Positions 7,619-57,989 of a stretch of 62,390 nucleotides of DNA are shown here, one piece after another (the first letter of the stretch is position 1; each line of letters starts with the position of its first letter). The position numbers were made by a program, and so were the translations under genes. Below the pieces are notes generated by a model that did not search any database, was not told where the DNA came from, and saw only the letters and a list, made by a program, of their open reading frames with translations. The DNA comes from an uncultured Alistipes sp. (lineage in GTDB: Bacteria; Bacteroidota; Bacteroidia; Bacteroidales; Rikenellaceae): positions 1-62,390 of the forward strand of contig CASDSD010000017.1 in assembly GCA_949283205.1 (NCBI GenBank). Direction: 5' to 3'.

Positions 7619-7619
7619 G

Positions 7620-34731: not shown

Positions 34732-34775
34732 AGTATGATGTATGTGTTTTTTGATTTGTGCAGGCTTTGTACGGA

Positions 34776-34807
34776 CAAAGATACGAAAAGGTGAGGGCAG
34801 AGACAAA
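34776..34807 (-). promoter_or_regulatory. Promoter of the GtaA-like gene
   Basis: On the minus strand TTTG (34807-34804), a 20-base spacer and TATCTTTG (34783-34776) fit the Bacteroidetes consensus exactly. It leaves a leader of about 38 bases before the start codon. Confidence 0.8.
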
Positions 34808-35345: not shown

Positions 35346-38291
35346 ATGCAAAAAACCAGATCTCTATTGATGAACATCGCGCTGTTGATGTTCGCGCTGC
35401 CTGCGTTGGCGCAGAGCGGCGGGACTGTCACGGTGAGCGGTGTCGTAACCTCCGCGGAGGACAAGCAGCCTCTCGTCGGGGTACATGTGATTGCGGGCGA
35501 CAACAGCGGTGTGAGTACGCTCATCGACGGCACCTACTCCGTAGAGGTGAAGGCCGGTGACGTGCTGACCTACTATTATGTCGGTTACGAGGTTGTCGAG
35601 TACACCGTACCCCAGGGGGCCGCAGCAGTAAAACACAATGTCGAGCTGAAGCCCGAGACGCAATCTCTCGAGGATGTCGTAGTGATAGCCTACGGCGTGC
35701 GCAAGAAGGGCACCATTGCCGGGTCGGTCTCGACGGTCAAGGCCGAGAAGATCGAGAACACCCCCACGGCGGCGTTCGACCAGGCGCTGCAGGGACAGGT
35801 CCCCGGACTGACGGTCCTCTCGAGCTCGGGCGAGCCGAGCGTCGCGGCGACGCTCAGCATCCGAGGCACCAACTCTATCAACTCGGGCACGGCCCCGCTC
35901 TACATTCTCGACGGCGCCGCGATCTCGAGTGCGGACTTCAACGCCATCAACCCCGCCGATATCGAGTCGATCTCGGTGCTGAAGGACGCCTCGTCGACAT
36001 CCATCTACGGAGCGCGTGCCGCAAACGGCGTGGTCGTCATCACGACCAAACGCGGACAGATGGCTTCGAAGCCGACGATATCGTACCGCATGCAGCTGGG
36101 ATTCTCGCAGCTGGCACAGGGCAACTGGGACCTGATGAATACCGCCGAGCGTATCCAGTACGAGAAGGAGATCGGCCTCACCTCGGGCAAGAACTACGAC
36201 CTGCTGAGCAAGACTGACGTCAGCTGGCTCGATGCCGTATATAACAATGCGGCGCTGTTGCAGAACTACGAACTGTCTGTTTCTGGCGCCAGCGAGCGCA
36301 CCAACTATTACATCTCGGGCGGCTACTACAACCAGGACGGTATCGCCGTAGGGTCGTACTTCGACCGCTATTCGCTGCGTGCCAACATCGAGCAGCGTGC
36401 CGCCGACTGGCTCAAGGTGGGTACCAACACCATGCTCAACTACCAGGGCATAGAGCAGGCCGACGAGGGATCGTATACGCTGGTGACGCCCATCTCGGCC
36501 GCACGCTTCATGCTCCCGTACTGGAACCCCTACAATCCCGACGGGTCGCTCGCCTCGATCGACGACGGCACCTGGAAGGGCGACGGCCAGAACCCGCTCG
36601 AGTGGCTCGAGAAGAACCGCCGCGAATACAAGAAATACAAGCTGGTATCGAACCTCTTCGCCGAGGCTACCCCCATCGAGGGCCTGACGATACGCTCGCA
36701 GTTCACCATCGACTACTCGCACATGACGGGCTTCGGTTCGTCGACGCCGAGCTACGGGCCCAACCTGGGCGAGGGCAGCGCACAGCGCATATCGACCGAC
36801 GGCATGTCGCTCTCGGTGACCAATACGGTGAACTACCAGTTCCGCAAGGGGGCCAAGCACTCGTTCAACTTCCTCGTGGGACAGGAGGGCGTGGACTACC
36901 ACTACGAGGACTTCTCGATCCTGACCGAGGGGCAGAACAACGACCGTCTGGTCAACATCTCGACCGGCACGCGCGCCTCGTCATGGAGCGATACCACCGA
37001 TGACGACTACGCCTACCTGTCGTTCTTCGGCCGCGGCGAGTACAACTACGACAACCGCTACTATGCCGACTTCTCGATACGTACCGACGCTTCGTCGCGT
37101 TTCGGCGCCGACCGCCGCTGGGCGGGCTTCTGGTCGGTGAGCTTCATGTGGAACCTGCGGCAGGAGCGCTTCATGGACAACGCCAGCCGCTGGCTCACGA
37201 ATGCGCAGATCGCCGTCAGCACCGGTACTTCGGGTAACTCGTCGATACCCAACTACGAGCACCTCGCACTGGTATCGGGCGGCTCGGACTACTACGGCGA
37301 TGCGGGCATCGCACCCTCGCAGCCGGGCAGCGACAACCTCGGATGGGAGAAGCTCTGGACGACGAACCTCGCCTTCCACCTCGGATTCTGGAACCGCCTG
37401 AACGTAGACCTCGAATTCTACAACAAGCGTACCTCGGACATGCTGATGCTCGTGCCCGAACCCTATGCCAACAAGGGCTACGGCTACCGCTGGGACAACA
37501 TCGGCGTGATGGTCAACCGCGGCGTCGAGCTCAACGTCACGGGCACGATATTGTCGACCAAGGATTTCATGTGGTCGGTAAACGCCAACGTGTCGTATAA
37601 CCGCAACCGTATCCTGGAGCTCTACAACGGCGTGCAGGAGTACGAGATGTCGCAGACCTCGATGAAACTCGTCGTGGGCCACGACTCGGGCGAGTTCTAC
37701 ATCAACCGTTTTGCCGGCGTCAATCCCGTCAACGGCGACGCCCTGTGGTATACGAAGGACGGCGAGCTGACGAACGAGATGCGCGACGAGGACAAGGTGC
37801 TCGTCGGCAAGAGCATGACGGCGCCGTGGATCGGCGGTTTCGGCACCAACATCTCGTGGAAGGGTCTGGCGCTGTCGGCGCAGTTCTCGTGGGTGGCCGA
37901 CCGCTGGATGATAAACAACGACCGCTACTTCGACGAGTCGAACGGCCGCTACAGCTCGTACAACCAGTCGCGGCGTCTGCTCGACCGCTGGAAGGAGCCC
38001 GGCGACATCACCGACATTCCGCGCCACGGCGTATATACCGAGTTCGACGACCGTCTTCTGGAGGATGCCTCGTTCCTGCGCCTGAAGAATATCATGCTCA
38101 GCTACAGCCTGCCGTCGGAGCTGCTGCGCCGCAGCCGCTTCATCAGCGGCGTGCGCATCTATGCCCAGGCGCAGAACCTGTTTACCATAACGGGCTTCTC
38201 GGGTCTCGACCCCGAGGGCGTGGGCAACATGTACCAGGCGCAGTACCCCATGTCGCGCCAATTTACTTTCGGCCTCGATCTTATGTTCTAA
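35346..38291 (+). CDS. SusC/RagA-type TonB-linked outer-membrane transporter
   Basis: The 981-residue protein has a signal peptide (MNIALLMFALPALAQ). An N-terminal carboxypeptidase-D-like extension runs from VTVSGVVTSAEDKQPLVGVH to TYYYVGYEVVEYTV. The plug domain carries DVVVIAYGVRKKGTIAGSVS, AFDQALQGQVPGLTV, IRGTNSINSGTAPLYILDG and VLKDASSTSIYGARAANGVV, the SusC/RagA signature. A 22-strand barrel follows. It imports ligands delivered by the SusD partner, which follows 4 bases later. It may take oligosaccharides or peptides, like RagA. The protease and LRR neighbours and the lack of glycosidases favour peptides, which is inference. Confidence 0.95.
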   Translation: MQKTRSLLMNIALLMFALPALAQSGGTVTVSGVVTSAEDKQPLVGVHVIAGDNSGVSTLIDGTYSVEVKAGDVLTYYYVGYEVVEYTVPQGAAAVKHNVELKPETQSLEDVVVIAYGVRKKGTIAGSVSTVKAEKIENTPTAAFDQALQGQVPGLTVLSSSGEPSVAATLSIRGTNSINSGTAPLYILDGAAISSADFNAINPADIESISVLKDASSTSIYGARAANGVVVITTKRGQMASKPTISYRMQLGFSQLAQGNWDLMNTAERIQYEKEIGLTSGKNYDLLSKTDVSWLDAVYNNAALLQNYELSVSGASERTNYYISGGYYNQDGIAVGSYFDRYSLRANIEQRAADWLKVGTNTMLNYQGIEQADEGSYTLVTPISAARFMLPYWNPYNPDGSLASIDDGTWKGDGQNPLEWLEKNRREYKKYKLVSNLFAEATPIEGLTIRSQFTIDYSHMTGFGSSTPSYGPNLGEGSAQRISTDGMSLSVTNTVNYQFRKGAKHSFNFLVGQEGVDYHYEDFSILTEGQNNDRLVNISTGTRASSWSDTTDDDYAYLSFFGRGEYNYDNRYYADFSIRTDASSRFGADRRWAGFWSVSFMWNLRQERFMDNASRWLTNAQIAVSTGTSGNSSIPNYEHLALVSGGSDYYGDAGIAPSQPGSDNLGWEKLWTTNLAFHLGFWNRLNVDLEFYNKRTSDMLMLVPEPYANKGYGYRWDNIGVMVNRGVELNVTGTILSTKDFMWSVNANVSYNRNRILELYNGVQEYEMSQTSMKLVVGHDSGEFYINRFAGVNPVNGDALWYTKDGELTNEMRDEDKVLVGKSMTAPWIGGFGTNISWKGLALSAQFSWVADRWMINNDRYFDESNGRYSSYNQSRRLLDRWKEPGDITDIPRHGVYTEFDDRLLEDASFLRLKNIMLSYSLPSELLRRSRFISGVRIYAQAQNLFTITGFSGLDPEGVGNMYQAQYPMSRQFTFGLDLMF

Positions 38292-38295
38292 ACGT

Positions 38296-39819
38296 ATGAG
38301 AATGACTATGTTAAGAAATATAAAGTACTATCTTGCGGCCCTTCTGCTGATAGCGGGGCCCACCTCGTGCCTCGAAAAGTTGCCCGAGTCGGCCATCCCC
38401 GAGGGAGAGGCCATGCAGACCTACAGCGATGCCGAGCAGGTGGTTACGGGCATCTACGCCGGCCTGAAGAGCAGTGCGCTCTTCAGCGGCTCGCTCACCG
38501 TCATGCCCGACATACAGGCCGATCTGGTATATGCCGTGGAGAACTTCACCAATGTCTACGGCAGCATCTGGCAGTGGGACATCCTCTCGACGGACAGCGA
38601 CGTGGAGGCGGTCTATGCCGGACTCTACACCATCATCGCGCGCTGCAACTTCTATCTCGACAATATAGAAGCCGTGATGTCGCAGGAGACCGATGTCGCG
38701 AAGCTCGACAACCTCGAGATGTATACGGGCGAGGTATATACGGTCCGCGCGCTCTGCTACTCGAAGCTGCTGGAGTGCTTCTGCAAGGCCTACGATCCCG
38801 CCACGGCGGAGAACGAACTGGGCGTGGTGCTGCGTACGAAGTACAGCGAGCCCGAACCCATGAAGCGCGCCTCGCTCAAGGATTCCTACGCGCTTGTCAT
38901 ATCCGACCTGGAGCAGGCGGAGGAGCGCCTGGACAACGACTATGACCAGTACAACTCGATCTATGCCACGGCAGCGGCGGCACAGGCGCTGCATGCGCGC
39001 GTGGCGCTCTACATGCAGGACTGGCAGACGGCCATCGACTATGCCACGATGCTTATCGACAACGACGCCTTCGAGCTGGCCGACGGTACGGTGAGCTACT
39101 CGTCGACGGATACCTATCTGACTTACATGTGGAACTACGACTCGAGCTTCGAGATCATCTGGGAGCTGGGTTTCACGACCACCTCGTACGGCGGCGCCCT
39201 GGGCCAGGTGTTCCTCAATGCCGACCGCGACTACATGTATACCTATCCCGACTATGTTCCGGCGCAGTGGGTGCTGGACGCATACTCGGACAGCGACCTG
39301 CGGTACGAGGCCTACTTCTCGACCTACACCACGGGATATGCCAACGGCCTGACGTGGCCCCTGCTGATAAAGTATTTCGGCAACCGCAACCTCATCTCGG
39401 CGGCCAACATGTACATGTACTCGATGCCCAAGCTGTTCCGTCTCTCGGAGCAGTACCTGATCCGCGCCGAGGCGTACTGCAACCTGCCCACGCCCAACTA
39501 TTCGGCCGCGAGCAAGGACCTGACGGAGCTGCGCGCCAAGCGTTACAGCGGCGGTGCCGGCGCCCTGACGGTAGGCAGCGGCAACTGGCTCGAGACGATC
39601 TCGGAGGAGCGCATGCGCGAACTCTACATGGAGGGCTTCCGTCTGAACGACCTCAAGCGCTGGCATATGGGCTTCGAGCGTACGCCCCAGACCAACTCCC
39701 TGTCGGAGGGCAGCTCGCTCAAGATCGAGGCCGACGACCCGCGCTTCGTATGGCCCATCCCGCGCCACGAACTCGAGGCCCCGGGATCGGAGGTCGAACC
39801 CAATGAAAGCAATAAATAA
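38296..39819 (+). CDS. SusD/RagB-type nutrient-binding surface lipoprotein
   Basis: The 507-residue lipoprotein has lipobox GPTSC (followed by Leu-Glu-Lys-Leu). The SusD fold is shown by the TPR-like helical region (YAGLYTIIARCNFYLDNIE, VRALCYSKLLECFCKAYDP), the loop near ELGVVLRTKYSEPEP, LIRAEAYCNL and the closing ERMRELYMEGFRLNDLKRWH. It covers the SusC transporter as a lid and binds the ligand. ATG codons at 38296 and 38305 both suit the signal peptide. Confidence 0.95.
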   Translation: MRMTMLRNIKYYLAALLLIAGPTSCLEKLPESAIPEGEAMQTYSDAEQVVTGIYAGLKSSALFSGSLTVMPDIQADLVYAVENFTNVYGSIWQWDILSTDSDVEAVYAGLYTIIARCNFYLDNIEAVMSQETDVAKLDNLEMYTGEVYTVRALCYSKLLECFCKAYDPATAENELGVVLRTKYSEPEPMKRASLKDSYALVISDLEQAEERLDNDYDQYNSIYATAAAAQALHARVALYMQDWQTAIDYATMLIDNDAFELADGTVSYSSTDTYLTYMWNYDSSFEIIWELGFTTTSYGGALGQVFLNADRDYMYTYPDYVPAQWVLDAYSDSDLRYEAYFSTYTTGYANGLTWPLLIKYFGNRNLISAANMYMYSMPKLFRLSEQYLIRAEAYCNLPTPNYSAASKDLTELRAKRYSGGAGALTVGSGNWLETISEERMRELYMEGFRLNDLKRWHMGFERTPQTNSLSEGSSLKIEADDPRFVWPIPRHELEAPGSEVEPNESNK

Positions 39820-39846
39820 CGAAATAGCGACAAACAGATACGAACC

Positions 39847-40797
39847 ATGAGACGAATTACCGCATTGTTGTTTGCGACCCTGTCGGCGGGCCTTCTCGCC
39901 GTGGGTTGCGACTCGGGTAAAACGACCTACTCGGATGCCGAATACATCATGTTTACCGATACGCTGTCGACGAACATGGTGTTCCCCGACGAGGAGTATT
40001 TCCCCGTTCCCATAGCGTCGACGGTGGCGTGCGACTACGACCGCACCATCGGTGTGGAGGTTGTGGACCGCGGCAGCACCGCCATCGAGGGCTACCACTA
40101 CCGCCTGCGCTCGAATACGGTCACCATCAAGGCGGGCGAGCGCACCGCCAACGTGGAGGTCGCCGGCATATACGACCATATCGAGGCTACGGACTCCCTG
40201 GGCTTCACGCTCAAGCTGGTGATGCCGGAGCAGGTGACGTGGAACGACCTCTATAAGGACTACGACAAGACGGATGTAGTGTTATACAAGGGCTGCCACT
40301 GCGAGGACGACACCTTTACGGGGTGGTGCGTTGTGACCTCGATGCTGCTCTACAGCTATCCGAGCGCACTGGATACGAGCTACCAGCGTCTGATCCTCAC
40401 GGAGAAGCACCCCACGGAGCCCAACACCATCATCCTGCACGATTTCCTCTACGACGGCTATGACGTCACCATGCGCCTGAACACGGAGGATCCGTCGGAT
40501 CCCGTGGTCGAGATGGACGAGGACCAGGTGCTGAGCGACGAACAGACGGTCTTCGGCCAGATCAACGCCGACGACAAGATTCTGGGTACGGTGAGCCCCA
40601 ACTACTACTCGTACTACAATACCTGCCAGCGTTTTGCCGCCATATGGCTATACGTGTACCTGCAGGATGTGGGCCAGGAGGTCGGCACCGTGGGCGATTT
40701 CTACAATATACTGGAGTGGGTGTCATTCGAGGAGGCCGTGCGTCTGAAGGCCGAGGAGAACATGTCGGGCGCCCGCGATCCGCGCGACTATATGTGA
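39847..40797 (+). CDS. DUF4984-like surface lipoprotein
   Basis: The 316-residue lipoprotein has lipobox LAVGC followed by Asp-Ser. An N-terminal Calx-beta-like segment (STAIEGYHYRLRSNTVTIKA, DSLGFTLKLVMPEQVTWND) is joined to a C-terminal domain with GCHCEDDTFTGWCVVTSMLL and ILHDFLYDGYDVTMRLNTED, which resembles the DUF4843/DUF4984 families found next to SusCD pairs. It is probably surface exposed and ligand-binding, like SusE or SusF. The exact family name is less certain than the type. Confidence 0.7.
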   Translation: MRRITALLFATLSAGLLAVGCDSGKTTYSDAEYIMFTDTLSTNMVFPDEEYFPVPIASTVACDYDRTIGVEVVDRGSTAIEGYHYRLRSNTVTIKAGERTANVEVAGIYDHIEATDSLGFTLKLVMPEQVTWNDLYKDYDKTDVVLYKGCHCEDDTFTGWCVVTSMLLYSYPSALDTSYQRLILTEKHPTEPNTIILHDFLYDGYDVTMRLNTEDPSDPVVEMDEDQVLSDEQTVFGQINADDKILGTVSPNYYSYYNTCQRFAAIWLYVYLQDVGQEVGTVGDFYNILEWVSFEEAVRLKAEENMSGARDPRDYM

Positions 40798-40884
40798 TAT
40801 AAATAAATATATAATGCAGAGAAAAAGTACAAACCCCATTCTCTTTAATTATAGTATTTAAGTACAACCAAAAAACAATGCCTT

Positions 40885-42574
40885 ATGAAATCAATCTTAC
40901 AATGGGCTTCGATTCTGTTGGCAGGAGCCGCAATGTTGTTTACCTCGTGTAAGTCTGAAGATGAGGTGGTATTGCCGATCTTTCCCGATATGGTGATGGG
41001 AAGCATCCCTGTCGGCGAGACTACATGTGATATTACGTTTACGCCCAACCTCGATTGGACGGTAAGCATTCCTACCGACAGCGAGACGGCACAGTGGTTC
41101 GATCTGCTGGATGGCGACATGGCCGTTAGCTCGATCTCGGGCAAGGCCAGCACCACTCCTGTAACCGTTACCGTCGTTACGTCGGATCAGGAGCTCTTCG
41201 ATATGACCCCCGTATGCGAGGTGTCGCTCACGATGGGCGGCGAGACGAGGGTTATCGCTACCATTACTCGAAGCTCGTCACTCCGTACGTTCGACCTCTA
41301 TGCATCGGTGTATGACGAGGCCGAGGACGACTTCATCATGCCGTTCGAGTATTCGGAGACGGCGCTGGAGAAGTACAGCGGCGAGGATGTCCCCGAAACG
41401 GCTCCCGAAGGCGCCACGGCGCTGCGCTGGCCCATACGCGTCGGCGGTTACATGCAGGTATTCAAGACCACGAGCAACTTCGAGTGGCTGGCTTCGGCCC
41501 CCCTCATGGATCGAGCTGACGCAGACGGCGATCGAGGGTGAGGACGGCGCATACCAGGTTATGGTAAACGGCCTGTTCACCGAGGAGAACATCGATGGCG
41601 GCGTCGGCATCATCGACTTCTACGATGCGAACATAGACAAGGACGAGGATCCGGGCAACAACGCACACAACAGGTATTGCGTGACGATGCCTGCGTTCCG
41701 CGATCTGGTAAGACACAAGCAGGCCAATGCGGTCTTCTCATTCAACGCCGACGGACAGTATGTTTCGAGCACCGACGGCGGCACTGCCGAGAGCGCCGTA
41801 TCGAGCGTGTCGAGTACGGCCGGCATGAAGTTCTTCGTGATCGTTCCCGACGGTTATGGCGGTTACTATGCAGCCAAGGAGATGACCAACTGGGTAACCG
41901 TTACGGATACGTGGGATGAGAATGGCGAGATCTTCCAGAGCCACGACTACACCATCACCGTTGCGCCCAACGCGATGGCGGCTCGTACCGCCGTGCTGAT
42001 AGCGCTGCCGCAGACGCTGGCCGCCGGGATCGACGAGAACGGCGACCTGGAGGGACAGCTGCTCAAGGACGACAACAGCTTCGACCTGAAGGACGAGTAC
42101 AAGCCCTATGTGTTCGCTACGGTCGAGCAGGAGCAGGCCGGCAGCTCGGGTGACGGCGGTTTCGAGCTCTCATACTCTGCGGATGCCGAGTGGTATCTCA
42201 ACAGCGGTTTCTTCTCGCTGGAGGATCTTACGGCCGTTGATCCCGAATCGGATCCCGATGTAGCCGAATACGCCGGCGAGATCGAGATGGGAGGCAAGCT
42301 CTACCGTCTGACCTACAACAACCCGAGCATGAGCGAGGGTTCGCTTATGCTGAACATCAGCGGCGATTACAAGATGTCGATGGTTTACCCCATGGGCAAC
42401 GAATGGCTTGTCTTCTACGATGCCGCGTCGGGTATGGTCGATACGGGCTATTGCGTCATAGGAATGTCGGGCGAGGATCTGTCGTCTGGCGAGAAGGGCA
42501 GCAAGGGCTCGATCGCATTGTACGATTCGAACTTCCAGGTGGTTGCACGTATCATTTGCGTGCGCAACTACTAA
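40885..42574 (+). pseudogene. Frameshifted BACON-like surface lipoprotein
   Basis: A lipoprotein start (lipobox LFTSC, then Lys-Ser-Glu-Asp-Glu, a surface-export signal) opens a frame ending early at 41541. A second frame continues the protein to 42574. The break is at a run of six C (41498-41503). Dropping one C joins LASAP to SWIELTQTAIEGE and gives one continuous protein of about 560 residues. The N-terminal part has a BACON-like repeat (CDITFTPNLDWTVSIPTDSE), and the later part has beta-rich domains. Either a genuine frameshift, a phase-variable tract, or a sequencing error in the homopolymer is possible. The part after the break keeps normal codon use, so any loss is recent. Confidence 0.7.
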
Positions 42575-42615
42575 TATGACGGGGTGCCGGCCCCGGCCGG
42601 TGTCCGGATGATTTG

Positions 42616-42649
42616 CGGTGCCCCGTTGAATGGGGCGGGGCGCCGTTTT
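42616..42649 (+). terminator. Attenuator-like hairpin inside the locus
   Basis: CGGTGCCCC pairs with GGGGCGCCG (9 bp, 12-base loop), followed by TTTT. It lies between the frameshifted gene and the LRR gene at 42691. As no new promoter is obvious in the 41 bases after it, partial read-through is likely. Confidence 0.65.
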
Positions 42650-42690
42650 CATTAAACTATAATTAAAGAGTTTTCAAGACAAGGTTTTTT

Positions 42691-45447
42691 ATGAAACTTT
42701 TCAGACATAACGTAATGACCGTCGTGGTTGCCGCCGCGGTCGCTCTCTTTGCCGCGGGCTGCACCAATGACGACGGTATAGACAATCGCGAGCTGGACTA
42801 CGGATACGTACAGTTCAAGCTCTACAAGGAGGCGTCGGCGCCCGTATCGCAGCCGGCTGCGGAGTCGAACGGGACCCGTGCCGTTGTGGAGGAGCTCGAT
42901 TATCTGTCCGATGCCTGCAAGATAGAGATACGCCTGCTGTCGGGGAGCACGACCATAGCGCAGACCCTGACGCTCAACTACTCGGACAAGGAGACGGCCG
43001 AATACGGCATCCGCAGCGACAAGTTGCAGCTTCTGGCAGGGGAGTATCAGATTGTCGCCTTCATCCTCTACGATGCGGGTGACGAGCCGCTCTACCGCGG
43101 CACCACCGAGAACAGCACGCTCAACGTGGTGGCGGGCGGCCTTACGGTACAGGACCTCACGGTGAATGTTACGCCGCGCGGAAAGGTACGATTCAATCTG
43201 AAGAAAAGTTTCGAGGGTTTCGACGGCGATCTGGACTACGATCCGGCACCGACGCGTTCGGTGAACATCGCGCGCGAGTATACCTTCGATGAGATAAAGA
43301 CGTTCGACATGACCGTGCAGAAGGTCAACTCGGACGAGCTGCCCGTAACCTTCACGGACCTGAAGGCCGACTTCTCGATACACTTCGACGAGGATGATGA
43401 AGAGAGCGACGAGTTCGGATACCAGACCTCGTCGATCACGTGCGATTCATTGCTGTCGCTGCCTGCGGGCACATACGAGGTCGTGGGGTATGTGACCTAC
43501 GACACGAACGACATCATGCTCGAGGAGCGTTACAACGAGGTCATCGAGGGGAGCCAGTTCACCGTCGAGGACAACACCACGACGGATGCCACGGTCGCCG
43601 TCACGCTGCGCGAGGCCGACGAGTACATGAAGGACAACTACGCGCTGAAGGCGATATGGGAGGCTCTGGACGGCCCCAACTGGCACTACGGCGGCGAGTC
43701 GTACAGCAAGGGCTGCAACTGGGACTTCAACAAGTCGCCCGACCTGTGGAGCGACCAGCCCGGCGTCGAGGTGCACTCGAACGGACGTGTCGCCAAGCTT
43801 GTGCTGAGCGAGTTCGGCATCAGCGGCCACATGCCTGCCGCCATAGGGCAGCTCACGGAGCTTGTGGAGCTCTACCTCGGCACGCACAACGATATGAACT
43901 CGGGCACGTTCGACCCGATGCTCGACATGAGCAAGTCGCTCGAGGATCGCAACCGCAACCGTCTGGAGTATAACAGGCAGTACCTTGCGGCGACGCACCC
44001 CGCGACGCAGATGTCGTATCCGTGCGCTCTGGCGCTCAAGGAGCACGGCCTGACCAGCCCGGCGATGGCACTCTATGAGGAGGGCTATTCGGAGTCGGAG
44101 GTGATCGACCGCAGGACGGGCCGCCATCTCGAGATCGAGCCGAAGGATGTCATCGCGGGCCGTTTCTGCAACAACCTGCTGTCGCTGCCCAACGACATAG
44201 GGCGTCTGTCGAAGCTCGAGTATCTCTATATCGGCAACAGCCCCATCGAGATGCTCCCCGACTCTATCGGCCGCCTGAAGTCGTGTACGCTGCTGGAGAT
44301 ATACAACTGCCCCAACATGCACGGTCTGCCGGCTGCGGTGAAGGATCTGCCGGCCCTGGTGCAGGTGAACATATCGTGCAATTCGGGTACGGCCGCCGTG
44401 CCGGGATGGACGCACGAGGAGATCTCGCAGGCCATAGACTACTTTGCGCAGGGTGCCTCGAAGAACCTCATACAGATGCTCTACGCCCGCGACAACAACC
44501 TTGAGTCGGTTCCGGCCTCTATCGGAGGCATGGAGCGTCTGGGTCTGCTCGATCTGGCATACAACAAGATCTCGGGCGAGGTCGAGGCCTTCGGCCCCAA
44601 CTTCGCACCCGAGGAGGTGCACTTCGAGCACAACCGCATCACGGGATTCAAGTCGGTGGATTACAACGGTACGCGGATCTTCTGCAGTCTGGACAATCTG
44701 GATTCGTTCTCGGCATCGTACAACAACCTGACGCTGGTGCCGGACATCTTCTCGAGCAAGACGGACTATATAATGTCGGGCGTCGAGTTCGCCTATAACG
44801 ACATCACGGGCTTCGAGAACGGCAACAACGGCAAGTATCAGGGCATCAACGTCACCACCTTCACCCTCTCGGGCAACAAGATCAGGCAGTACCCCGCGTG
44901 TCTGGCCAAGAGTGCCTCGCAGATAAGCTATATCCTTCTGAGCGGCAACGGCATGACGGGCTTCGAGGAGGGCAGCTTCACGCCCGCCAAGGCGGAGAAT
45001 CTGGCAAACCTCATATCGATAGACCTTACGTACAACCGTCTCACGAAACTGCCGGATGATTTCCATGCGGGCAATATGCCGTATCTGTACGGCGTGGACC
45101 TGTCGTACAACGCCTTTGCGTCGTTCCCGTGGAACCCGACCGACGCATTGAGCCTTACGGTCTACGGGCTGCGCGGACAGAGGGCCGACGACGGTTCGCG
45201 CTGCCTGCGCGAGTGGCCTACGGGAATATACAAGCATACGGGTCTGCGCGGACTCTTCTTGGGTTCGAACGACCTGCGCAAGATCGACGATACGATATCG
45301 TATATGATATACAATCTCGATATCAGCGACAACCCCAACATAACCTTCGACGCCAGCGAGATATGCTACTATTGGCAGGCCGGCGCCTTCAACCTCATTT
45401 ACGACAAGACGCAGAATATAGTGAATTGTCCCGAAATGCTTGAATAA
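42691..45447 (+). CDS. LRR surface lipoprotein with N-terminal DUF4458-type domains
   Basis: The 918-residue lipoprotein has lipobox FAAGC (Cys 24), then Thr-Asn-Asp-Asp, a surface-export signal. Residues about 30-305 form two beta-sandwich DUF4458-like domains (LDYGYVQFKLYKEASAP, ITCDSLLSLPAGTYEVVGYV). From about residue 360 a leucine-rich-repeat array follows: LPNDIGRLSKLEYLYIGNSP, ESVPASIGGMERLGLLDLAY, NLISIDLTYNRLTKLPDDFH and similar units of about 23 residues. LRRs are protein-binding scaffolds, so a protein or peptide ligand at the surface is plausible. The companion LRR gene follows 9 bases later. Confidence 0.85.
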   Translation: MKLFRHNVMTVVVAAAVALFAAGCTNDDGIDNRELDYGYVQFKLYKEASAPVSQPAAESNGTRAVVEELDYLSDACKIEIRLLSGSTTIAQTLTLNYSDKETAEYGIRSDKLQLLAGEYQIVAFILYDAGDEPLYRGTTENSTLNVVAGGLTVQDLTVNVTPRGKVRFNLKKSFEGFDGDLDYDPAPTRSVNIAREYTFDEIKTFDMTVQKVNSDELPVTFTDLKADFSIHFDEDDEESDEFGYQTSSITCDSLLSLPAGTYEVVGYVTYDTNDIMLEERYNEVIEGSQFTVEDNTTTDATVAVTLREADEYMKDNYALKAIWEALDGPNWHYGGESYSKGCNWDFNKSPDLWSDQPGVEVHSNGRVAKLVLSEFGISGHMPAAIGQLTELVELYLGTHNDMNSGTFDPMLDMSKSLEDRNRNRLEYNRQYLAATHPATQMSYPCALALKEHGLTSPAMALYEEGYSESEVIDRRTGRHLEIEPKDVIAGRFCNNLLSLPNDIGRLSKLEYLYIGNSPIEMLPDSIGRLKSCTLLEIYNCPNMHGLPAAVKDLPALVQVNISCNSGTAAVPGWTHEEISQAIDYFAQGASKNLIQMLYARDNNLESVPASIGGMERLGLLDLAYNKISGEVEAFGPNFAPEEVHFEHNRITGFKSVDYNGTRIFCSLDNLDSFSASYNNLTLVPDIFSSKTDYIMSGVEFAYNDITGFENGNNGKYQGINVTTFTLSGNKIRQYPACLAKSASQISYILLSGNGMTGFEEGSFTPAKAENLANLISIDLTYNRLTKLPDDFHAGNMPYLYGVDLSYNAFASFPWNPTDALSLTVYGLRGQRADDGSRCLREWPTGIYKHTGLRGLFLGSNDLRKIDDTISYMIYNLDISDNPNITFDASEICYYWQAGAFNLIYDKTQNIVNCPEMLE

Positions 45448-45456
45448 TACGCAACT

Positions 45457-47193
45457 ATGAAAATACTGAACTATATCGTATTGTCGCTTCTCGTGGCATC
45501 CGCATGGGTCGGGTGCAACAACAGCGAGAGCCTCGTTCTCGACCTCGACAACAACTCGATCGAGATAGATGCGGCGGGCGGCACCCGCAGCATCAAGGTG
45601 TCGTCCTCGGACAACTGGGTCGCCTCGGCCTCGGTGCCCTGGGTTACCGTAACGCCGGCCAACGGCTACGGCTGCCGGGAGTGCAAGATCGTAATCGACT
45701 CGGCCCTGACGACGGAGGTGCGTACCGGCGTGGTGCGTATCGCCAAGACGGAGAACAGCTCGGAGTTCAAGGAGATCGCCATCCGTCAGGACGGTTTCGA
45801 CTATTCGATCTCGCTGGATGAGCCCGAGGTGTCGATTGACAACTACGCTGCGCTTGAGGAGCGTCATCTGGATGTCCGGGTAAGGTCGAATGTCGATTTC
45901 GACGTCAGGATTCCGGACGACGTGGCGAGCTGGGTGCGTACCGACGACTATGCCCTGACGCTCGACCGCGGCCTGCGTCCGCGCGAGGTTACGGTGCGTT
46001 TCAACTGGGGCATCAACTCGGTGCCGCAGGAGCGTATCGCCGAGATCGAGTTTGTCCCCAAGGACGAGAGCGGTGTCTCGTCGGATATGCTTGCGCGCAA
46101 CGACCGTCTCACCATCCGTCAGAATGCGGCCGCGGAGATCAAGCGCGGCACGCGCGAGGGCGACTCGGTTGCGCTGCTGGGCATAGCGCGCACGCTCGGC
46201 GTCTGGGGCGACAGCTGGGAGAGCTCGGGCGAGAAGATGGACAACTGGGATAACGTCGTGCTGTGGGAAGAGGGAATGGACGGATATGTCGATTCGCTCA
46301 AGGGTCGTGTCAAGTCGGCGCGGTTCTACATGTTCTCGACCAAGGAGGGCCTGCCCTACGAGGTGCAGTATCTCACGGGTGCCGAGGAGCTGGAGTTCTA
46401 CAGCAATGTCAACACGTTCCAGCTCAGCCTCAGCACGGGCGAGTATATATGCAAGCTGGAGCATCTGAAGCGTCTGACCATCGGTGCGTACGGTTTGACC
46501 GAACTGCACGAGGACTTCAAGAACCTCCGGGAGCTGGAGTATCTCGATCTGGGCAGCAACAACTTCCAGAGGGTGCCGGATGTAATCAATCCGCAGAACT
46601 TCCCCAAGCTTCACGTGCTCAGACTGGCCAACAACCAGCGTAGGCTTATCTACGACCTGAGCAACAACATATCGACCAATTTCGGCGGGTTCTATGACGA
46701 GACGGCGCACAACGGCGAGCAGTTCGGGCCGTTCCCATCGCGGCTGCTCAAGTGGACGGCCGACGAGGCCAACGGCGTGACGGGTCTCGACACGCTTGTG
46801 CTCTCGGTGAATTACCTGCAGGGCAGCATCCCGTCGTTCGAGGATGACAATACGATCGGTTACTATACCGAGCAGGATATAGTCAACAGTGCCGACACGC
46901 TGCCGCGCAAGATGCTCACGGTAAAGAAGGTTATGCCGCAGCTGAAGATGTTCACCATAAACCTGAACCGTCTGACGGGGCCTCTGCCCGAGTGGCTGCT
47001 CTACCACCCGTCGCTCGACTGGTGGGATCCCGGCACGCTGGTATTCACGCAGGAGGGCAAGGACGAGCTGGGCAACCTCTCCGGGTTCAGCAACCAGCCC
47101 GCCAACATGAATTATTACTACGAGGTTTATACGAAGAAGAAGCTTGCGAACGGCGTCGGGGATGAGGACGATACCGACTCTTCGGGCGAATAA
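45457..47193 (+). CDS. BACON-domain LRR surface lipoprotein
   Basis: The 578-residue lipoprotein has lipobox WVGC, then Asn-Asn-Ser-Glu. Residues about 25-115 form a BACON-type beta-sandwich (IEIDAAGGTRSIKVSSSDNW, then VASASVPWVTVTPANG), and a second beta-sandwich begins near YSISLDEPEVSIDNYAALEE. LRR-like segments appear from about residue 320 (LEHLKRLTIGAYGLTELHED, LRELEYLDLGSNNFQRVPD, LKMFTINLNRLTGPLPEWLL). It is likely a binding protein next to the subtilase gene, which follows 12 bases later. Confidence 0.8.
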   Translation: MKILNYIVLSLLVASAWVGCNNSESLVLDLDNNSIEIDAAGGTRSIKVSSSDNWVASASVPWVTVTPANGYGCRECKIVIDSALTTEVRTGVVRIAKTENSSEFKEIAIRQDGFDYSISLDEPEVSIDNYAALEERHLDVRVRSNVDFDVRIPDDVASWVRTDDYALTLDRGLRPREVTVRFNWGINSVPQERIAEIEFVPKDESGVSSDMLARNDRLTIRQNAAAEIKRGTREGDSVALLGIARTLGVWGDSWESSGEKMDNWDNVVLWEEGMDGYVDSLKGRVKSARFYMFSTKEGLPYEVQYLTGAEELEFYSNVNTFQLSLSTGEYICKLEHLKRLTIGAYGLTELHEDFKNLRELEYLDLGSNNFQRVPDVINPQNFPKLHVLRLANNQRRLIYDLSNNISTNFGGFYDETAHNGEQFGPFPSRLLKWTADEANGVTGLDTLVLSVNYLQGSIPSFEDDNTIGYYTEQDIVNSADTLPRKMLTVKKVMPQLKMFTINLNRLTGPLPEWLLYHPSLDWWDPGTLVFTQEGKDELGNLSGFSNQPANMNYYYEVYTKKKLANGVGDEDDTDSSGE

Positions 47194-47205
47194 TCGAATG
47201 CAGAG

Positions 47206-49329
47206 ATGAAAACGAACAGACATATTCTAATGATTGCGATCGGCGCATTGTCGTTGATCCTCTTCGGCGCCTGCACCAAGGATGACAGTTTCGATACGAC
47301 CCCTGCGGGGCCTGTCGAGCCGGCCGAGATGACGGGCGAGGTAATAGTGAAATTTGCCCCATACGTGAGCGATATCCTCGACAGCGTGGGCGTGGCAACC
47401 ACACGCAGCGGCGCCGCTGCCACGCGCTCGGGCATATTGCCGGTGGACGAGGTGCTGGATCTCCTGGGCGGCTGCGAGGTGGAGCGTATCTTCCCCGTGG
47501 ATACACGTACCGAGGAGCGTACGCGCGAAGCGGAGCTGCATCTGTGGTATGCGGTGCGTTTCAGCAAGGAGCACACCGTGGATGAGGTCATTGCGCGCCT
47601 CTCGCAGATAGGCGAGGTGCAGACGGCCACGCCCAACCGCGTGATCAAGCGCGCCTACCGCGACGACCGCAAGGCCATTCCGGTGTCGCGGCGCATGCTG
47701 GACGGCGCCGTGACGCGTGCCGCGGGCGGTTACGTCTATAACGACGCTCTGCTGCCGTGGCAGTGGCACATCATCAACCAGGGCTACCGCGACAACTTCG
47801 TCATCGGCGACACCGACGGCAAGACGGTGGAGGAGGTGCAGGCGAAGTTCCGCGCCGGCGCCGACGTCAACTGCGAGGCGGCGTGGACGCGTACCACGGG
47901 CGATCCCTCGATCGTCGTGGCCGTCCTCGACGAGGGTATCTACTGGCGCCATCCCGACCTTATGTACAACATGTGGGAGAACGAGGACGAACCCTACTAC
48001 TCGGATGAGGCGGGCAGTCACGTGTCGTACGAGGACCGTGACGGCAACGGCTATGCGGGCGACCACTACGGGTTCAACTTCATCGACAATACGGGCGTCA
48101 TCTCGTGCGACGCCTCGGCCGATACGGGCCACGGTACGCACGTTGCGGGCGTCATCGCCGCACGCAACAACAACGGCATAGGCATCGCGTCTATCGCGGG
48201 CGGTACGGAGCAGAATCCGGGCGTCAAGGTCATGTCGTGCCAGATATTCTCGGGCGACAAGGCCAGCAGCACGATAAGCCTCGTGCGCGCCATCAAGTAT
48301 GCGGCCGACAACGGCGCCGTAATCCTGCAGTGCAGCTGGGGATATGCGTCTCCCGCAGCCAACGGCTACGAGTACTCTCCGGGTTTCGCCACGGAGGAGG
48401 AGTGGGAGTCGATGTGCCCTCTCGAGAAGGCCGCTCTGGATTACTTCGTACATAACGCCGGCTCGCCCAACGGCCCCATCGAGGGTGGTATCCCCATCTT
48501 CGCGTCGGGCAACGAGTATGCCGCTGCGGGCGGTTTCCCGGGCGCTGCAGACTATTGCGTCTCGGTAAACGCCACGGCTGCAGACTATACCATCTCGACT
48601 TTCTCGAACTACGGCGAGTTCACCGATATCGCGGCCCCGGGCGGCGACCAGGACTACTACTACGAGTTCTTCGACGTGGATAACGCCCGCGGTGCCGTGG
48701 GATGCGTCCTCTCGACGCTGCCGCCGCAGGTGAGCAACCAGACGGGATACGGATACATGGAGGGTACCTCGATGGCATGCCCGCACGTGTCGGGCGTGGC
48801 GGCGCTGGGCCTCTCGTACGCCGTGCAGCTGCGCAAGCACTTCACGGCCGACGAGTTCCGCAAGCTGCTCGTGGAGAGCGTTACGCCGATCGACGAGTAT
48901 CAGGTGGGCATGAAGTACTACTACACGTATGTCACCGACCTGGACAAGGCGCGCTATACGTCGGTGCCCCTGTCGCAGTACTACGGCTGCTCGGGCGGTA
49001 TGGTCAATGCCGAGAAGCTGCTCGAGGCCATTGCCGACGATGCCGCCGGCTCGAAGGTGACCTTCCCCAACATATATCTTGCTCCGGGCGAGGAGAATGC
49101 CGTCACGGAGACTCCGGCACACTATTTCGTCGGAGGCGAGGCGCTGAGCTACACGCTGCAGATCGCCGATGCGTCAGTGGCTACGGGCGTGATCACGGCA
49201 GAGGGCAAGGCCGTCTTTACGGGTGTCGCCGAGGGTGTTACCACGGCCTCGATCACGGCTTCGAACGGTGAGACGCACAATTTCAATATCACGGTGCGCA
49301 AGGGTGCCAACGGCAGCGGCTGGCTCTGA
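47206..49329 (+). CDS. Subtilisin-like (S8) surface lipoprotein protease
   Basis: The 707-residue lipoprotein has lipobox LFGAC (Cys 23), then Thr-Lys-Asp-Asp, a surface-export signal. Residues about 43-150 form a fervidolysin-like prodomain. The S8 catalytic domain has Asp 242 (VAVLDEGIYWRHPDL), His 309 (DTGHGTHVAGVIAA), oxyanion Asn 436 (FASGNEYAA) and Ser 522 (EGTSMACPHVSGVAALGLS), so all triad residues are present. A BIG2-like C-terminal domain follows from about residue 620 (GVITAEGKAVFTGVAEGVTT). It would cleave proteins at the cell surface and feed the SusCD pair. Substrate preference is not predictable. Confidence 0.9.
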   Translation: MKTNRHILMIAIGALSLILFGACTKDDSFDTTPAGPVEPAEMTGEVIVKFAPYVSDILDSVGVATTRSGAAATRSGILPVDEVLDLLGGCEVERIFPVDTRTEERTREAELHLWYAVRFSKEHTVDEVIARLSQIGEVQTATPNRVIKRAYRDDRKAIPVSRRMLDGAVTRAAGGYVYNDALLPWQWHIINQGYRDNFVIGDTDGKTVEEVQAKFRAGADVNCEAAWTRTTGDPSIVVAVLDEGIYWRHPDLMYNMWENEDEPYYSDEAGSHVSYEDRDGNGYAGDHYGFNFIDNTGVISCDASADTGHGTHVAGVIAARNNNGIGIASIAGGTEQNPGVKVMSCQIFSGDKASSTISLVRAIKYAADNGAVILQCSWGYASPAANGYEYSPGFATEEEWESMCPLEKAALDYFVHNAGSPNGPIEGGIPIFASGNEYAAAGGFPGAADYCVSVNATAADYTISTFSNYGEFTDIAAPGGDQDYYYEFFDVDNARGAVGCVLSTLPPQVSNQTGYGYMEGTSMACPHVSGVAALGLSYAVQLRKHFTADEFRKLLVESVTPIDEYQVGMKYYYTYVTDLDKARYTSVPLSQYYGCSGGMVNAEKLLEAIADDAAGSKVTFPNIYLAPGEENAVTETPAHYFVGGEALSYTLQIADASVATGVITAEGKAVFTGVAEGVTTASITASNGETHNFNITVRKGANGSGWL

Positions 49330-49334
49330 TAAAT

Positions 49335-50186
49335 TTGACAAATAAGATAAGGGAGACTATGCGCCGGGGCGGAACAATATGCTGTATGGTGGTGTCGGCG
49401 GCGGCCGCATTCCTTGCGGCGGTGCCGGCGCAGGCGCAGTGGCATACGGTTTCGCGCAGCCGGCTGGACAGCCTGGCCAATCCGCCGCTGGCGGCGGGAC
49501 GCGAGGCCATGGTCTTCGAGCGGACGACGGTGACGACGGACCCTATCGAGGAGGACGGCGGTGCCAGAAACTACACCTTCAGCTGGAGCAACGAGGGGCG
49601 GACGCCGCTGGTTATAACGCGTGTGAAGAGTACCTGCGGCTGTGCCGTCGCGGCGTACGACCGCAAGCCGGTCGCTGCGGGTGCCAAGGGCACGGTTACG
49701 GTAACGTACCACCCGAAGGGCCATCCGGGGGCTTTCCGCCAGCGGATATTCCTCTACACGCAGCTGGACGACGAGCGCCCGACGGCCATCCTGACCCTGG
49801 CGGGTGAGGTCATAGCATCGGTGCGGCCGACATACGCCTATCCCCATGCCCGGGGAGCGCTGCTCTTCAAGCAGGAGGAGGTCACCTTCGCCGCCTCGCG
49901 CCGTGGCGTCGAGAGCATCGAGTGCCTTAACGGCGGCAAGGATACGCTGCGCATAAGCGTCGATACGCTGCTGCTGCCGTCATGCCTCAAGGCGGTGTTC
50001 GAGCCGGCGACGCTCGCACCCGACGGCGTGGGGGAACTGACGATCCGTTTCGATCCCTCTGCGGGACGTGCGCCGCAGCGCATGCCCGTCGTGCTGCAGG
50101 GGCTTGGAGTGCCGCCCGCGCAGGGCAGTATCACGGTGCGCGTAGCCCCGGAGGAGAATGAGATGCAACATGAGAATAATAATTGA
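49335..50186 (+). CDS. DUF1573 secreted protein
   Basis: The 283-residue protein has a signal peptide (SAAAAFLAAVPAQAQ) and a DUF1573 domain (FSWSNEGRTPLVITRVKSTC, then GCAVAAYDRKPVAAG) with KGTVTVTYHPKGHPGAFRQR, followed by a second similar beta domain with TLAPDGVGELTIRFDPSAGR. The first start is at 49335. A start at 49359 (MRRGGTICC) gives a more normal n-region. Function is unknown. DUF1573 often accompanies surface loci of Bacteroidetes. It overlaps the upstream end of the next frame only in non-used sequence. Confidence 0.8.
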   Translation: MTNKIRETMRRGGTICCMVVSAAAAFLAAVPAQAQWHTVSRSRLDSLANPPLAAGREAMVFERTTVTTDPIEEDGGARNYTFSWSNEGRTPLVITRVKSTCGCAVAAYDRKPVAAGAKGTVTVTYHPKGHPGAFRQRIFLYTQLDDERPTAILTLAGEVIASVRPTYAYPHARGALLFKQEEVTFAASRRGVESIECLNGGKDTLRISVDTLLLPSCLKAVFEPATLAPDGVGELTIRFDPSAGRAPQRMPVVLQGLGVPPAQGSITVRVAPEENEMQHENNN

Positions 50187-50193
50187 CAATGAT

Positions 50194-50676
50194 ATGAAAA
50201 GAATCTTTACACTGATGCTTCTGTCGCTGGCTGTGGTGATGAGCGGCTGCGAGAAGGACAATACCTACGAAGACCCGGGGCTCGATGTCTCGCTCTACAA
50301 CATTGCGGGCGTCTGGCGCCTCGCATCGTGGAACGACGGCACGGAGATGGCCGAGGGCAGCTACGTGTATGTCGAGTTGTCGTACCGCGACGGCAACGAC
50401 TTCACGATCTACCAGAACCTCGACAGTTTCGGCCCGCGCCGTATTACGGGTACCTACAACCTCTATACGGACGATGCGCTGGGTGCCGTCATACGCGGCA
50501 TGTATGACTATGAGAACGGCGACTGGGCGAGCTGTTACATCATCCGCGACCTCTATGAGGACCGTATGACGTGGATCGCCGTGGGTGACGAGACCAATGT
50601 CTCGGAGTATGTCCGCTGCGAGGCCGTCCCCGAGGAGATCCTCTCGCAGTTCGAGCCCGAGGAGGTGGAGGAGTAA
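50194..50676 (+). CDS. Small lipocalin-like surface lipoprotein
   Basis: The 160-residue lipoprotein has lipobox VMSGC (Cys 19), then Glu-Lys-Asp-Asn. The body (YNIAGVWRLASWNDGTEMAE, YVYVELSYRDGNDFTIYQNL, GPRRITGTYNLYTDDALGAV) matches small lipocalin-like proteins of Bacteroidetes. The start at 50194 was chosen because it begins the signal peptide. It is the last gene of the SusCD run and is followed by a terminator. Confidence 0.75.
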   Translation: MKRIFTLMLLSLAVVMSGCEKDNTYEDPGLDVSLYNIAGVWRLASWNDGTEMAEGSYVYVELSYRDGNDFTIYQNLDSFGPRRITGTYNLYTDDALGAVIRGMYDYENGDWASCYIIRDLYEDRMTWIAVGDETNVSEYVRCEAVPEEILSQFEPEEVEE

Positions 50677-50730: not shown

Positions 50731-50765
50731 GGCGCCGTCCCCGATGGGGCGGCGCCTTGTGTTTG
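50731..50765 (+). terminator. Terminator of the SusCD-LRR-subtilase locus
   Basis: A stem of 11 pairs (GGCGCCGTCCC with GGGCGGCGCC region, one G-U) is followed by TTGTGTTT. It is about 55 bases after the last gene. Confidence 0.6.
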
Positions 50766-52982: not shown

Positions 52983-53006
52983 ACCCGCCAAAGAGAGTTC
53001 CCGATC

Positions 53007-54662: not shown

Positions 54663-54711
54663 GCGCAGGGGTTCGGCGACAGACTGCAGATGGAGTTTTT
54701 TGGCGAAAAAT

Positions 54712-54742
54712 TTTGCAGATAATAAAATCGTGGCTATATTTG
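54712..54742 (+). promoter_or_regulatory. Promoter of tRNA-Leu
   Basis: TTTG at 54712-54715, a 19-base spacer and TATATTTG at 54735-54742, an exact Bacteroidetes promoter with the same spacing as the tRNA-Glu promoter. Confidence 0.8.
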
Positions 54743-54790
54743 CACACCTTTTCGGACGTATGTGCATGCACGGCGTACGGAAAACCGCCT

Positions 54791-54879
54791 GCCCAGGTGG
54801 TGAAATTGGTAGACACGCTACTTTGAGGGGGTAGTGAACAATTAGGTTCGTGCAAGTTCGAGTCTTGTCCTGGGCACCA
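54791..54879 (+). tRNA. tRNA-Leu (anticodon GAG), CCA encoded
   Basis: Acceptor GCCCAGG pairs with CCTGGGC, the anticodon loop TTGAGGG gives GAG (Leu codons CTC/CTT), a long class II variable arm follows, and the T arm is present, then A and CCA. 89 bases. Confidence 0.93.
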
Positions 54880-54883
54880 TGAG

Positions 54884-54920
54884 CCGCGTCAGACGAATGT
54901 TTGACGCGGTTTTTCTTTTT
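54884..54920 (+). terminator. Rho-independent terminator of tRNA-Leu
   Basis: CCGCGTCA (54884-54891) pairs with TGACGCGG (54902-54909) and is followed by TTTTTCTTTTT. It marks the edge of the high-GC region. Confidence 0.9.
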
Positions 54921-55123
54921 CCGTGTCCGCACCGACCGCTTCTTCCGGCATCCCTTCAATATGTATGGAACGGAAGTCTCTGTCAGGACTCCGAATTTTC
55001 CGTATTCTTGCGAATCGGAGGCCTCTAAAAAACGGTTCCTTCTGTTAAAAGAGAGTTCCGGCCCGAATCCTTGTGTTCTGTCGGCACAGGATGGGGAAAA
55101 TGCCCGATTCGGGATTTATGCAA

Positions 55124-56023: not shown

Positions 56024-56049
56024 AAAACAAATTTATGTATAGGATAAAA

Positions 56050-56074
56050 ATGATTAATTATGCAAATATATCAT
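56050..56074. promoter_or_regulatory. Candidate LysR operator
   Basis: An imperfect dyad with outer arms ATGAT (56050-56054) and ATCAT (56070-56074) lies between the divergent LysR and transporter genes, just upstream of the transporter -7 box. Position and AT-rich, interrupted symmetry fit a T-N11-A-type LysR site. Confidence 0.45.
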
Positions 56075-56091
56075 TTCTGATCCGAATATGC

Positions 56092-56099
56092 TACTTTTG
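56092..56099 (+). promoter_or_regulatory. -7 box of the BASS-like transporter
   Basis: TACTTTTG, an exact TAnnTTTG match, 26 bases before the start codon at 56125. TTTC lies about 20 bases upstream. Confidence 0.65.
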
Positions 56100-56124
56100 T
56101 CGAGAAATTAAAAAAACATAAAAA

Positions 56125-57081: not shown

Positions 57082-57123
57082 TGTGGCTGTCACGATGGCG
57101 TGCGGACCGGTATGGTTCGCTTG

Positions 57124-57960: not shown

Positions 57961-57981
57961 GGTTAATGTACTTTTTTACAA

Positions 57982-57989
57982 CAAAAATA
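57982..57989 (-). promoter_or_regulatory. -7 box of the AraC-family gene
   Basis: TATTTTTG on the minus strand, 22 bases before the start codon, matching TAnnTTTG. Confidence 0.55.

What the first reader, a model, noticed from the sequence alone, without database searches (positions are those of the whole stretch)
35346..50676. A SusCD locus built from LRR, BACON and subtilase lipoproteins instead of glycosidases
SusC and SusD are followed by a DUF4984-like lipoprotein, a BACON-like lipoprotein, two LRR lipoproteins, an S8 protease with an intact triad and surface-export signals, a DUF1573 protein and a lipocalin-like protein, all on one strand. No carbohydrate-active enzyme and no local regulator is present. 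Several lipoproteins carry acidic residues just after the lipid cysteine (Lys-Ser-Glu-Asp, Thr-Asn-Asp-Asp, Thr-Lys-Asp-Asp), the surface-export signal of Bacteroidetes. The reading is a protein-capture and proteolysis system feeding a RagA-like importer, which I have not seen described as a unit.
Basis: partly seen in the sequence, partly recalled or inferred. Interest (0 to 1): 0.75.

Follow-up and report, generated by a model that had tools for sequence, protein, structure and literature searches.

The report
Gut bacterial protein-capture and import operon
Gut bacteria of the Alistipes kind and their relatives carry a nine-gene cassette that looks built to catch proteins, cut them and import the pieces, and its protein-cutting enzyme is nearly always accompanied by a small barrel-shaped lipoprotein that may hold it in check.

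Summary
The nine genes are a conserved unit. Of 85 distinct relatives with enough flanking sequence, 72 have all nine in order on one strand; flanking genes differ almost everywhere. B. thetaiotaomicron appears to have the same operon (annotation of BT0207-08 and BT0211-13); I found no paper treating it as a unit. The importer is RagA-like (RagA imports oligopeptides). New here: the S8 protease, DUF1573 and lipocalin-like genes come as a block (105 loci: 95 with all three, 10 without, none mixed on that strand), so the protease is an optional module on a core of SusCD, DUF4984, gene 4 and two LRR lipoproteins. Over 61 genomes, counts of lipoprotein-type S8 proteases and of this lipocalin agree in 60 (59 if one frame-broken S8 is counted). 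The lipocalin model is an eight-stranded barrel; potempin E, a Tannerella protease inhibitor, is among tied fold matches. Best reading: peptide uptake from captured proteins, with a probable protease guard. Substrate, binding and inhibition are untested.

The parts
35346..38291 (+). SusC/RagA-type TonB-dependent importer
   Evidence: TIGR04056 779 bits; best PDB match RagA 591 bits against 380 for the next SusC type
38296..39819 (+). SusD/RagB-type lipoprotein lid
   Evidence: PF07980 and PF14322; RagB among tied best PDB matches, 69 bits
39847..40797 (+). DUF4984 lipoprotein
   Evidence: PF16372 140 bits
40885..42574 (+). gene 4: Ig-like/BACON-type lipoprotein, reading frame broken in this window
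   Evidence: two overlapping frames; open in relatives; model of the L078 homologue is nearly all beta (pLDDT 85, pTM 0.58), Foldseek matches are multi-Ig chains at low TM-score
42691..45447 (+). LRR1: DUF4458 x2 + LRR_10 + leucine-rich repeats, lipoprotein
   Evidence: profile matches solved LRR protein 4ecn over its length, 929 bits
45457..47193 (+). LRR2: BACON + leucine-rich repeats, lipoprotein
47206..49329 (+). S8 subtilase with S8_N domain, lipoprotein, C-terminal -GWL
   Evidence: D, H, N and S catalytic positions 98 of 98 in relatives, -GW[LMIVF] end 94 of 98
49359..50186 (+). DUF1573 protein with a type I-like signal peptide (AQA|Q, by eye), so probably periplasmic
   Evidence: PF07610 92 bits; present or absent together with S8
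50194..50676 (+). lipocalin-like lipoprotein, proposed partner/guard of the S8 protease
   Evidence: model pLDDT 87, eight strands; lipocalin and potempin E matches; paired with S8
50731..50756 (+). terminator-like hairpin after the last gene
   Evidence: 11 pairs, 10 G-C; 1 found, 0.6 expected in shuffles

Best explanation
A self-contained surface system for taking up peptides from captured proteins. LRR1, LRR2, the Ig-like gene-4 protein and the DUF4984 lipoprotein form a surface capture array on a RagAB-like SusC-SusD importer (inferred). An optional module adds a lipid-anchored S8 endopeptidase that cuts what is held (inferred from intact catalytic residues), a probably periplasmic DUF1573 protein of unknown task, and a lipocalin-like beta-barrel lipoprotein that binds the protease as inhibitor or guard, as potempins do for the KLIKK proteases of Tannerella (inferred). 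Peptides then enter through the SusC barrel by TonB (inferred from RagA). Shown here: gene order, block-wise presence and absence, RagA-likeness, catalytic residues, fold of the lipocalin model, and the S8-lipocalin tie.
For: All nine genes in order on one strand in 72 of 85 distinct loci with room, and in 12 of 20 loci of a second family (20 taken of 36 hits). Flanks unconserved: 76 upstream clusters over 79 loci, largest in 7 loci; 101 downstream clusters, largest in 9. In 150 genomes of the window's family LRR1 occurs in 56; S8 orthologues (>=556 bits) in 56 of 56 and 1 of 94 without LRR1; SusD orthologues (>=510 bits) in 52 of 56 and 0 of 94. SusC: RagA 591 bits against 380 and 323 for other solved SusC homologues; two other SusCs of the own genome show the reverse, 406/395 against RagA 259, and 373 against 328. 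S8 catalytic residues 98 of 98. S8/DUF1573/lipocalin present or absent together in 105 of 105 loci. Lipocalin-S8 tie: 36 of 41 unclipped short S8s outside the main set paired, 0 of 14 long ones; counts agree in 60 of 61 genomes (59 if G005 is counted as short).
Against: 10 of 105 loci have the LRR-SusCD core with no S8 in the fetched stretch, so the core does not need a linked protease. Four loci (L060, L061, L166, L167) have LRRs and S8 but no SusCD beside them; their genomes lack the SusD orthologue and their best SusC elsewhere is only 30-34% identical. The SusD is no closer to RagB than to other SusDs. A GH2 beta-galactosidase-type gene lies upstream in 4 of 79 loci. Deleting BT_0212 in B. 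theta did not remove the one cleavage tested (PMC6282197), which neither supports nor excludes a digestive role. Potempin E is only one of several tied fold matches, with no sequence-level match. Two of 11 strong lipocalin hits have no S8 nearby. No expression, binding or transport data.
Confidence: 0.58

Rival explanations
1. The core (LRRs + RagAB-like SusCD) imports something else that is protein-linked, such as glycopeptides or wall fragments. S8 is an occasional accessory that trims the protein part.
For: Core without S8 exists (L161-163; 7 of 20 in the second family). A GH2-type gene lies upstream in 4 of 79 loci. BACON and Ig-like accessory domains are common in glycan systems (recalled).
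Against: No CAZyme in the unit and no flank gene in more than 9 of 79 loci; SusC nearest to the peptide importer RagA; S8 present in 95 of 105 loci.
Confidence: 0.2
2. S8 is a maturation or signalling protease of the operon's own surface proteins, with the lipocalin as its chaperone; nutrition is not its purpose.
For: About one lipocalin per lipoprotein-type S8; S8 and lipocalin kept in four loci without SusCD beside them; N-terminal S8_N domain present.
Against: In other loci S8-lipocalin pairs stand beside different SusCDs without LRR1 or LRR2 matches (L188-190; L193 the same with one S8), so no common local substrate; 22 of 36 paired S8s there have a SusC in the fetched stretch; the core occurs without S8.
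Confidence: 0.13
3. The lipocalin-like protein is not an inhibitor but binds a small ligand or product, or docks S8 on the importer.
For: Fold matches include true lipocalins and Bacteroides lipocalin-like proteins at tied or near Z; conserved S8 C-terminus -GW[LMIVF] in 94 of 98 and 41 of 44 lipoprotein-type S8, 0 of 14 long forms, which could be a docking tail.
Against: The tie is to the protease rather than to SusCD: 14 of 36 pairs have no SusC in the fetched stretch; whole-genome counts follow S8.
Confidence: 0.4
4. Iron or other micronutrient scavenging.
For: BT0207-08 and BT0211-13 appear in an iron-response table (PMC10434189, passages).
Against: The listed changes are negative (read as lower without iron) and, if the second column is a p value as I read it, not significant (0.084-0.57).
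Confidence: 0.04

Closest known systems
RagAB oligopeptide importer of Porphyromonas gingivalis
   Same: SusC closest to RagA (591 bits); SusD lid of the same family; no glycosidase in the unit
   Different: Here seven further genes incl. LRR lipoproteins and a linked protease; RagB is not the clear best SusD match. RagAB function is recalled, and seen as the start of an abstract in a listing (PMC11817032)
B. thetaiotaomicron BT0206-BT0214
   Same: Published annotation gives BT0207 SusD, BT0208 DUF4984, BT0211 BACON, BT0212 S8, BT0213 DUF1573 in this order; solved LRR 4ecn matches LRR1 over its length (that 4ecn is BT_0210 is recalled)
   Different: Apparently the same operon; BT0206, BT0209 and BT0214 are inferred by position, and the B. 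theta sequence was not fetched, so orthology rests on annotation
Polysaccharide utilisation loci / SusCD utilisomes
   Same: SusCD plus surface lipoproteins in one operon (recalled; utilisome paper PMC7618045 seen as abstract start in a listing, and a few methods and reference passages)
   Different: No CAZyme in the unit and no adjacent regulator in the window; a protease instead
KLIKK protease-potempin pairs of Tannerella forsythia
   Different: Here mostly downstream of the protease, and the protease is itself lipid-anchored with a -GWL end; inhibition unknown; no sequence similarity found in the PDB

Membership tests
Polysaccharide utilisation locus | SusC-SusD pair | tested here: met
Polysaccharide utilisation locus | linked carbohydrate-active enzyme | tested here: not met
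   none in the unit. In relatives a GH2-type gene is upstream in 4 of 79 loci; other flank genes of relatives were not scanned by family
Polysaccharide utilisation locus | adjacent regulator (HTCS, ECF sigma/anti-sigma, SusR) | tested here: not met
   none in the unit or next to it in the window; in relatives no flank gene recurs in more than 9 of 79 loci, flanks not scanned for regulators
RagAB-type peptide importer | SusC nearest to RagA rather than to other solved SusCs | tested here: met
   591 against 380 bits; two of the own genome's other SusCs show the reverse
RagAB-type peptide importer | SusD nearest to RagB | tested here: inconclusive
   69 bits, tied with other SusDs
RagAB-type peptide importer | binds and imports oligopeptides | not testable with these tools
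   needs purified complex
Peptidase S8 (active) | Asp, His, Ser and oxyanion Asn | tested here: met
   98 of 98 nine-gene S8 frames of at least 600 aa, aligned to the window
Potempin-type protease inhibitor | small lipoprotein encoded beside one protease | tested here: met
   36 of 41 short unclipped S8s; 9 of 11 strong genome-wide hits
Potempin-type protease inhibitor | gene directly upstream of the protease | tested here: not met
   of 31 pairs within 300 bp, 23 downstream, 6 upstream, 2 on the other strand
Potempin-type protease inhibitor | fold of potempin E | tested here: inconclusive
Potempin-type protease inhibitor | inhibits the linked protease | not testable with these tools
   needs an assay; no complex model was run

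The most novel reading that the evidence does not exclude
Lipid-anchored S8 proteases of gut Bacteroidales each have a dedicated beta-barrel lipoprotein guard, a potempin-like system present about one to one per genome, and these protease-guard pairs are plugged as modules into different SusCD importers. The nine-gene operon is the fixed protein-eating version, a protein counterpart of the polysaccharide utilisome.
Probability: 0.4. Interest if true: 0.78.

Novelty: new variant of a known kind. Interest (0 to 1): 0.6.

Why it matters
How gut Bacteroidales eat protein is poorly mapped compared with glycans (recalled). A portable operon that joins capture proteins, an optional protease and a RagA-like importer gives a testable counterpart of the polysaccharide locus, apparently also in a model organism (BT0206-BT0214). 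A dedicated inhibitor for surface subtilases would explain how a cell keeps an active protease among its own surface proteins, and would show that the Tannerella protease-inhibitor arrangement is a commensal theme.

Tried and rejected
S46 peptidase and AspT carrier as part of the unit: rejected. They lie 254 bp beyond, after a terminator-like hairpin, and gave no match in the other fetched loci. GtaA-like neighbour: matched only beside the nearest relative L078. RNA: no Rfam match above gathering score in 30-56 kb. Upstream DNA is alike only in close relatives. Universal Sus-type surface signal: only about half, by a crude script that also mis-picks some cysteines. A recurring tenth gene after the lipocalin: 10 loci. 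Sequence link between lipocalin and potempin: none.

Limits of the counts. Coupling in the 150 genomes depends a little on the threshold: at 500 bits one more LRR1-negative genome (G139) would join G093. Fisher and Mantel values ignore phylogeny. The 134 of 134 lipocalin result is on loci chosen for S8 or LRR; the unselected test is, whose first look scored at most 61 (lipocalin) or 19 (S8) candidates per genome, so hits may be missed. G005 has an S8 split over two frames, with no -GWL end and no lipocalin on its contig; I left it out as unclassified, and counting it as short gives 59 of 61. L072-L077 (short duplicates) and L164 were left out: 130 loci gave 107 distinct, 22 of them clipped; within the 85, L150 and L151 are near-duplicates. 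The 47 stretches with further S8s (L182, L188-L233) were picked by hand from capped lists, some because SusC or tandem S8s lay near.

Literature: ten searches, held open-access library only. PMC7610489 (RagAB structure) is not held, so its content is recalled.
Full report
What is there. The window is contig C17 of a 2.39 Mb, 92% complete genome; the 80 relatives kept with names are Alistipes, Tidjanibacter, Candidatus Cryptobacteroides and others titled Rikenellaceae or Bacteroidales, nearly all MAGs. Between 35346 and 50676 lie nine genes on the + strand: SusC, SusD, DUF4984 lipoprotein, gene 4, LRR1, LRR2, S8 subtilase, DUF1573 protein, lipocalin-like lipoprotein. Gaps are 4-29 bp except 87 and 116 bp beside gene 4. 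A terminator-like hairpin follows at 50731-50756. Gene 4 is broken by a frameshift here. The nearest relative L078 (LRR1 91% identical) has it open at 562 aa, so it is a recent change or a MAG consensus error.

Is it a unit. I fetched 130 loci around LRR1 relatives, of which 107 are distinct and 85 have at least 7 kb before and 5 kb after LRR1. All nine genes in order on one strand, by BLAST: 72 of 85 (70 plain; L101 and L134 with an extra hit). L149 has all nine, but its SusC is inverted. Gene 4 not found by BLAST: 6 of 85; 5 of these have a 397-526 aa ORF with a signal-like start at that place and L057 has none. No S8, DUF1573 or lipocalin: 3 (L161-163). No SusCD: 3 (L060, L061, L166); a clipped fourth, L167, also lacks them. 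Outside the unit little is shared: 76 upstream and 101 downstream clusters over 79 loci including the window, the largest in 7 and 9 loci (the ORF caller sometimes takes antisense frames). One upstream cluster, in 4 loci, is a GH2 beta-galactosidase-type gene. So the cassette is conserved while its place is not, and no flank gene travels widely with it.

Distribution. LRR1 is in 56 of 150 genomes of the window's family, 3 of 22 genera; 7 of 393 genomes and 5 of 207 genera drawn over the order; and 34 of 301 genomes, 8 of 30 genera, of a second large family (f60; unnamed, its size and a 5.2 Mb genome suggest Bacteroidaceae, inference). In the 150, S8 orthologues at 556 bits or more are in 56 of 56 LRR1 genomes and 1 of 94 others; SusD orthologues in 52 of 56 and 0 of 94. 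The four LRR1 genomes without the SusD orthologue are those without SusCD beside the locus; their best SusC elsewhere is 30-34% identical.

Two locus types. I took 20 of the 36 f60 hits. Twelve have the full set; one (L258) is clipped upstream but has S8, DUF1573 and lipocalin; seven have SusC-SusD-DUF4984-LRR1-LRR2 (gene 4 matched in five) and none of the last three on that strand, though two of them (L246, L253) have a DUF1573 match on the other strand. One genome (G802) has both types. Added to the 85 (82 all three, 3 none), S8, DUF1573 and lipocalin are all present or all absent in 105 of 105; the two sets share no near-identical stretch. In L161 and L163 LRR2 is followed by a further LRR lipoprotein. 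The protease block is therefore an optional module on an LRR-importer core.

Importer. The SusC's best solved relative is RagA (591 bits), then other SusC homologues at 380 and 323, and BT_2264 at 121. Two of the own genome's other SusCs (five full-length ones seen) give 406 and 395 against RagA 259, and 373 against 328, so RagA-likeness belongs to this locus, not to the genome. The SusD does not decide. That RagAB imports oligopeptides is established knowledge (recalled; abstract start of PMC11817032 in a listing).

Protease. Asp, His, Ser and the oxyanion Asn are present in 98 of 98 nine-gene S8 frames of at least 600 aa, 44 of 44 short S8s of L182-L233 and 14 of 14 long ones. The lipoprotein-type S8s end in -GW[LMIVF] in 94 of 98 and 41 of 44, the long ones in 0 of 14. 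Three long ones were scanned: all match the type IX sorting-tail family (Por_Secre_tail), one above and two below its cut-off.

Reading. Shown: unit, modules, RagA-likeness, intact protease, S8-lipocalin tie, barrel fold. Inferred: LRR and Ig-like proteins capture protein, S8 cuts it, SusCD imports peptides, lipocalin guards S8. Against: the core occurs without S8, a few loci lack SusCD, the fold match is not specific, and no function has been measured.

Known or new. By published annotation B. theta BT0207-08 and BT0211-13 match positions 2, 3 and 6-8 (PMC10434189, passages). BT_0212 was deleted in a screen for EspB cleavage without effect (PMC6282197, passages). Locus-tag and domain-name searches found no paper on the operon as a unit in the held library. 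I rate it a new variant of a known kind, with the protease-guard tie as the new element.

Noticed in passing
window 41300-41541: Frameshift in gene 4 at a short C run; open in relatives. MAG error or recent break not decided.
   Followed up: partly
window 50931-54662: S46 dipeptidyl peptidase closest to Asp/Glu-specific DPPs (560 bits against 327 for DPP BII) followed after 24 bp by an AspT-type carrier: a possible acidic-dipeptide unit, not matched beside other copies.
   Followed up: partly
window 32263-34806: GtaA-type glutaminase-like protein, divergent from SusC; also beside L078.
   Followed up: no
window 54001-60000: G+C falls to 0.45-0.51 from about 0.63, with a LysR regulator and an MFS carrier: possible acquired stretch.
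   Followed up: no
L188, L189, L190, L193: A second kind of SusCD locus: SusC, SusD, a 760-870 aa lipoprotein, then one (L193) or two S8-lipocalin pairs.
   Followed up: partly
L191 (G037:C8), L228: Tandem long S8 proteases (seven in 20 kb in L191), none with a lipocalin partner; the two scanned from L191 match the sorting-tail family below its cut-off.
   Followed up: partly
S8 C-termini, nine-gene and short S8s: Conserved C-terminal -GW[LMIVF] in lipoprotein-type S8 (94 of 98, 41 of 44) and 0 of 14 long ones. Role unknown.
   Followed up: partly
L060, L061, L149, L160, L166, L167: A 640-810 aa lipoprotein without a Pfam match over its cut-off (two scanned) after the lipocalin; BLAST relatives in 10 loci.
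   Followed up: partly
L149:231-6863: Candidatus Cryptobacteroides locus with SusC-SusD-DUF4984 inverted and a partial second SusD and second DUF4984 in the forward unit: possible duplication or inversion.
   Followed up: no
L194:7840-9318, L195, L222: Lipocalin domain inside longer stop-to-stop frames (420-490 aa) upstream of S8; true protein ends not determined.
   Followed up: no
L264 (G005:C387) 7389-9258: S8 homologue split over two frames with no -GWL end and no lipocalin on its 14 kb contig.
   Followed up: partly
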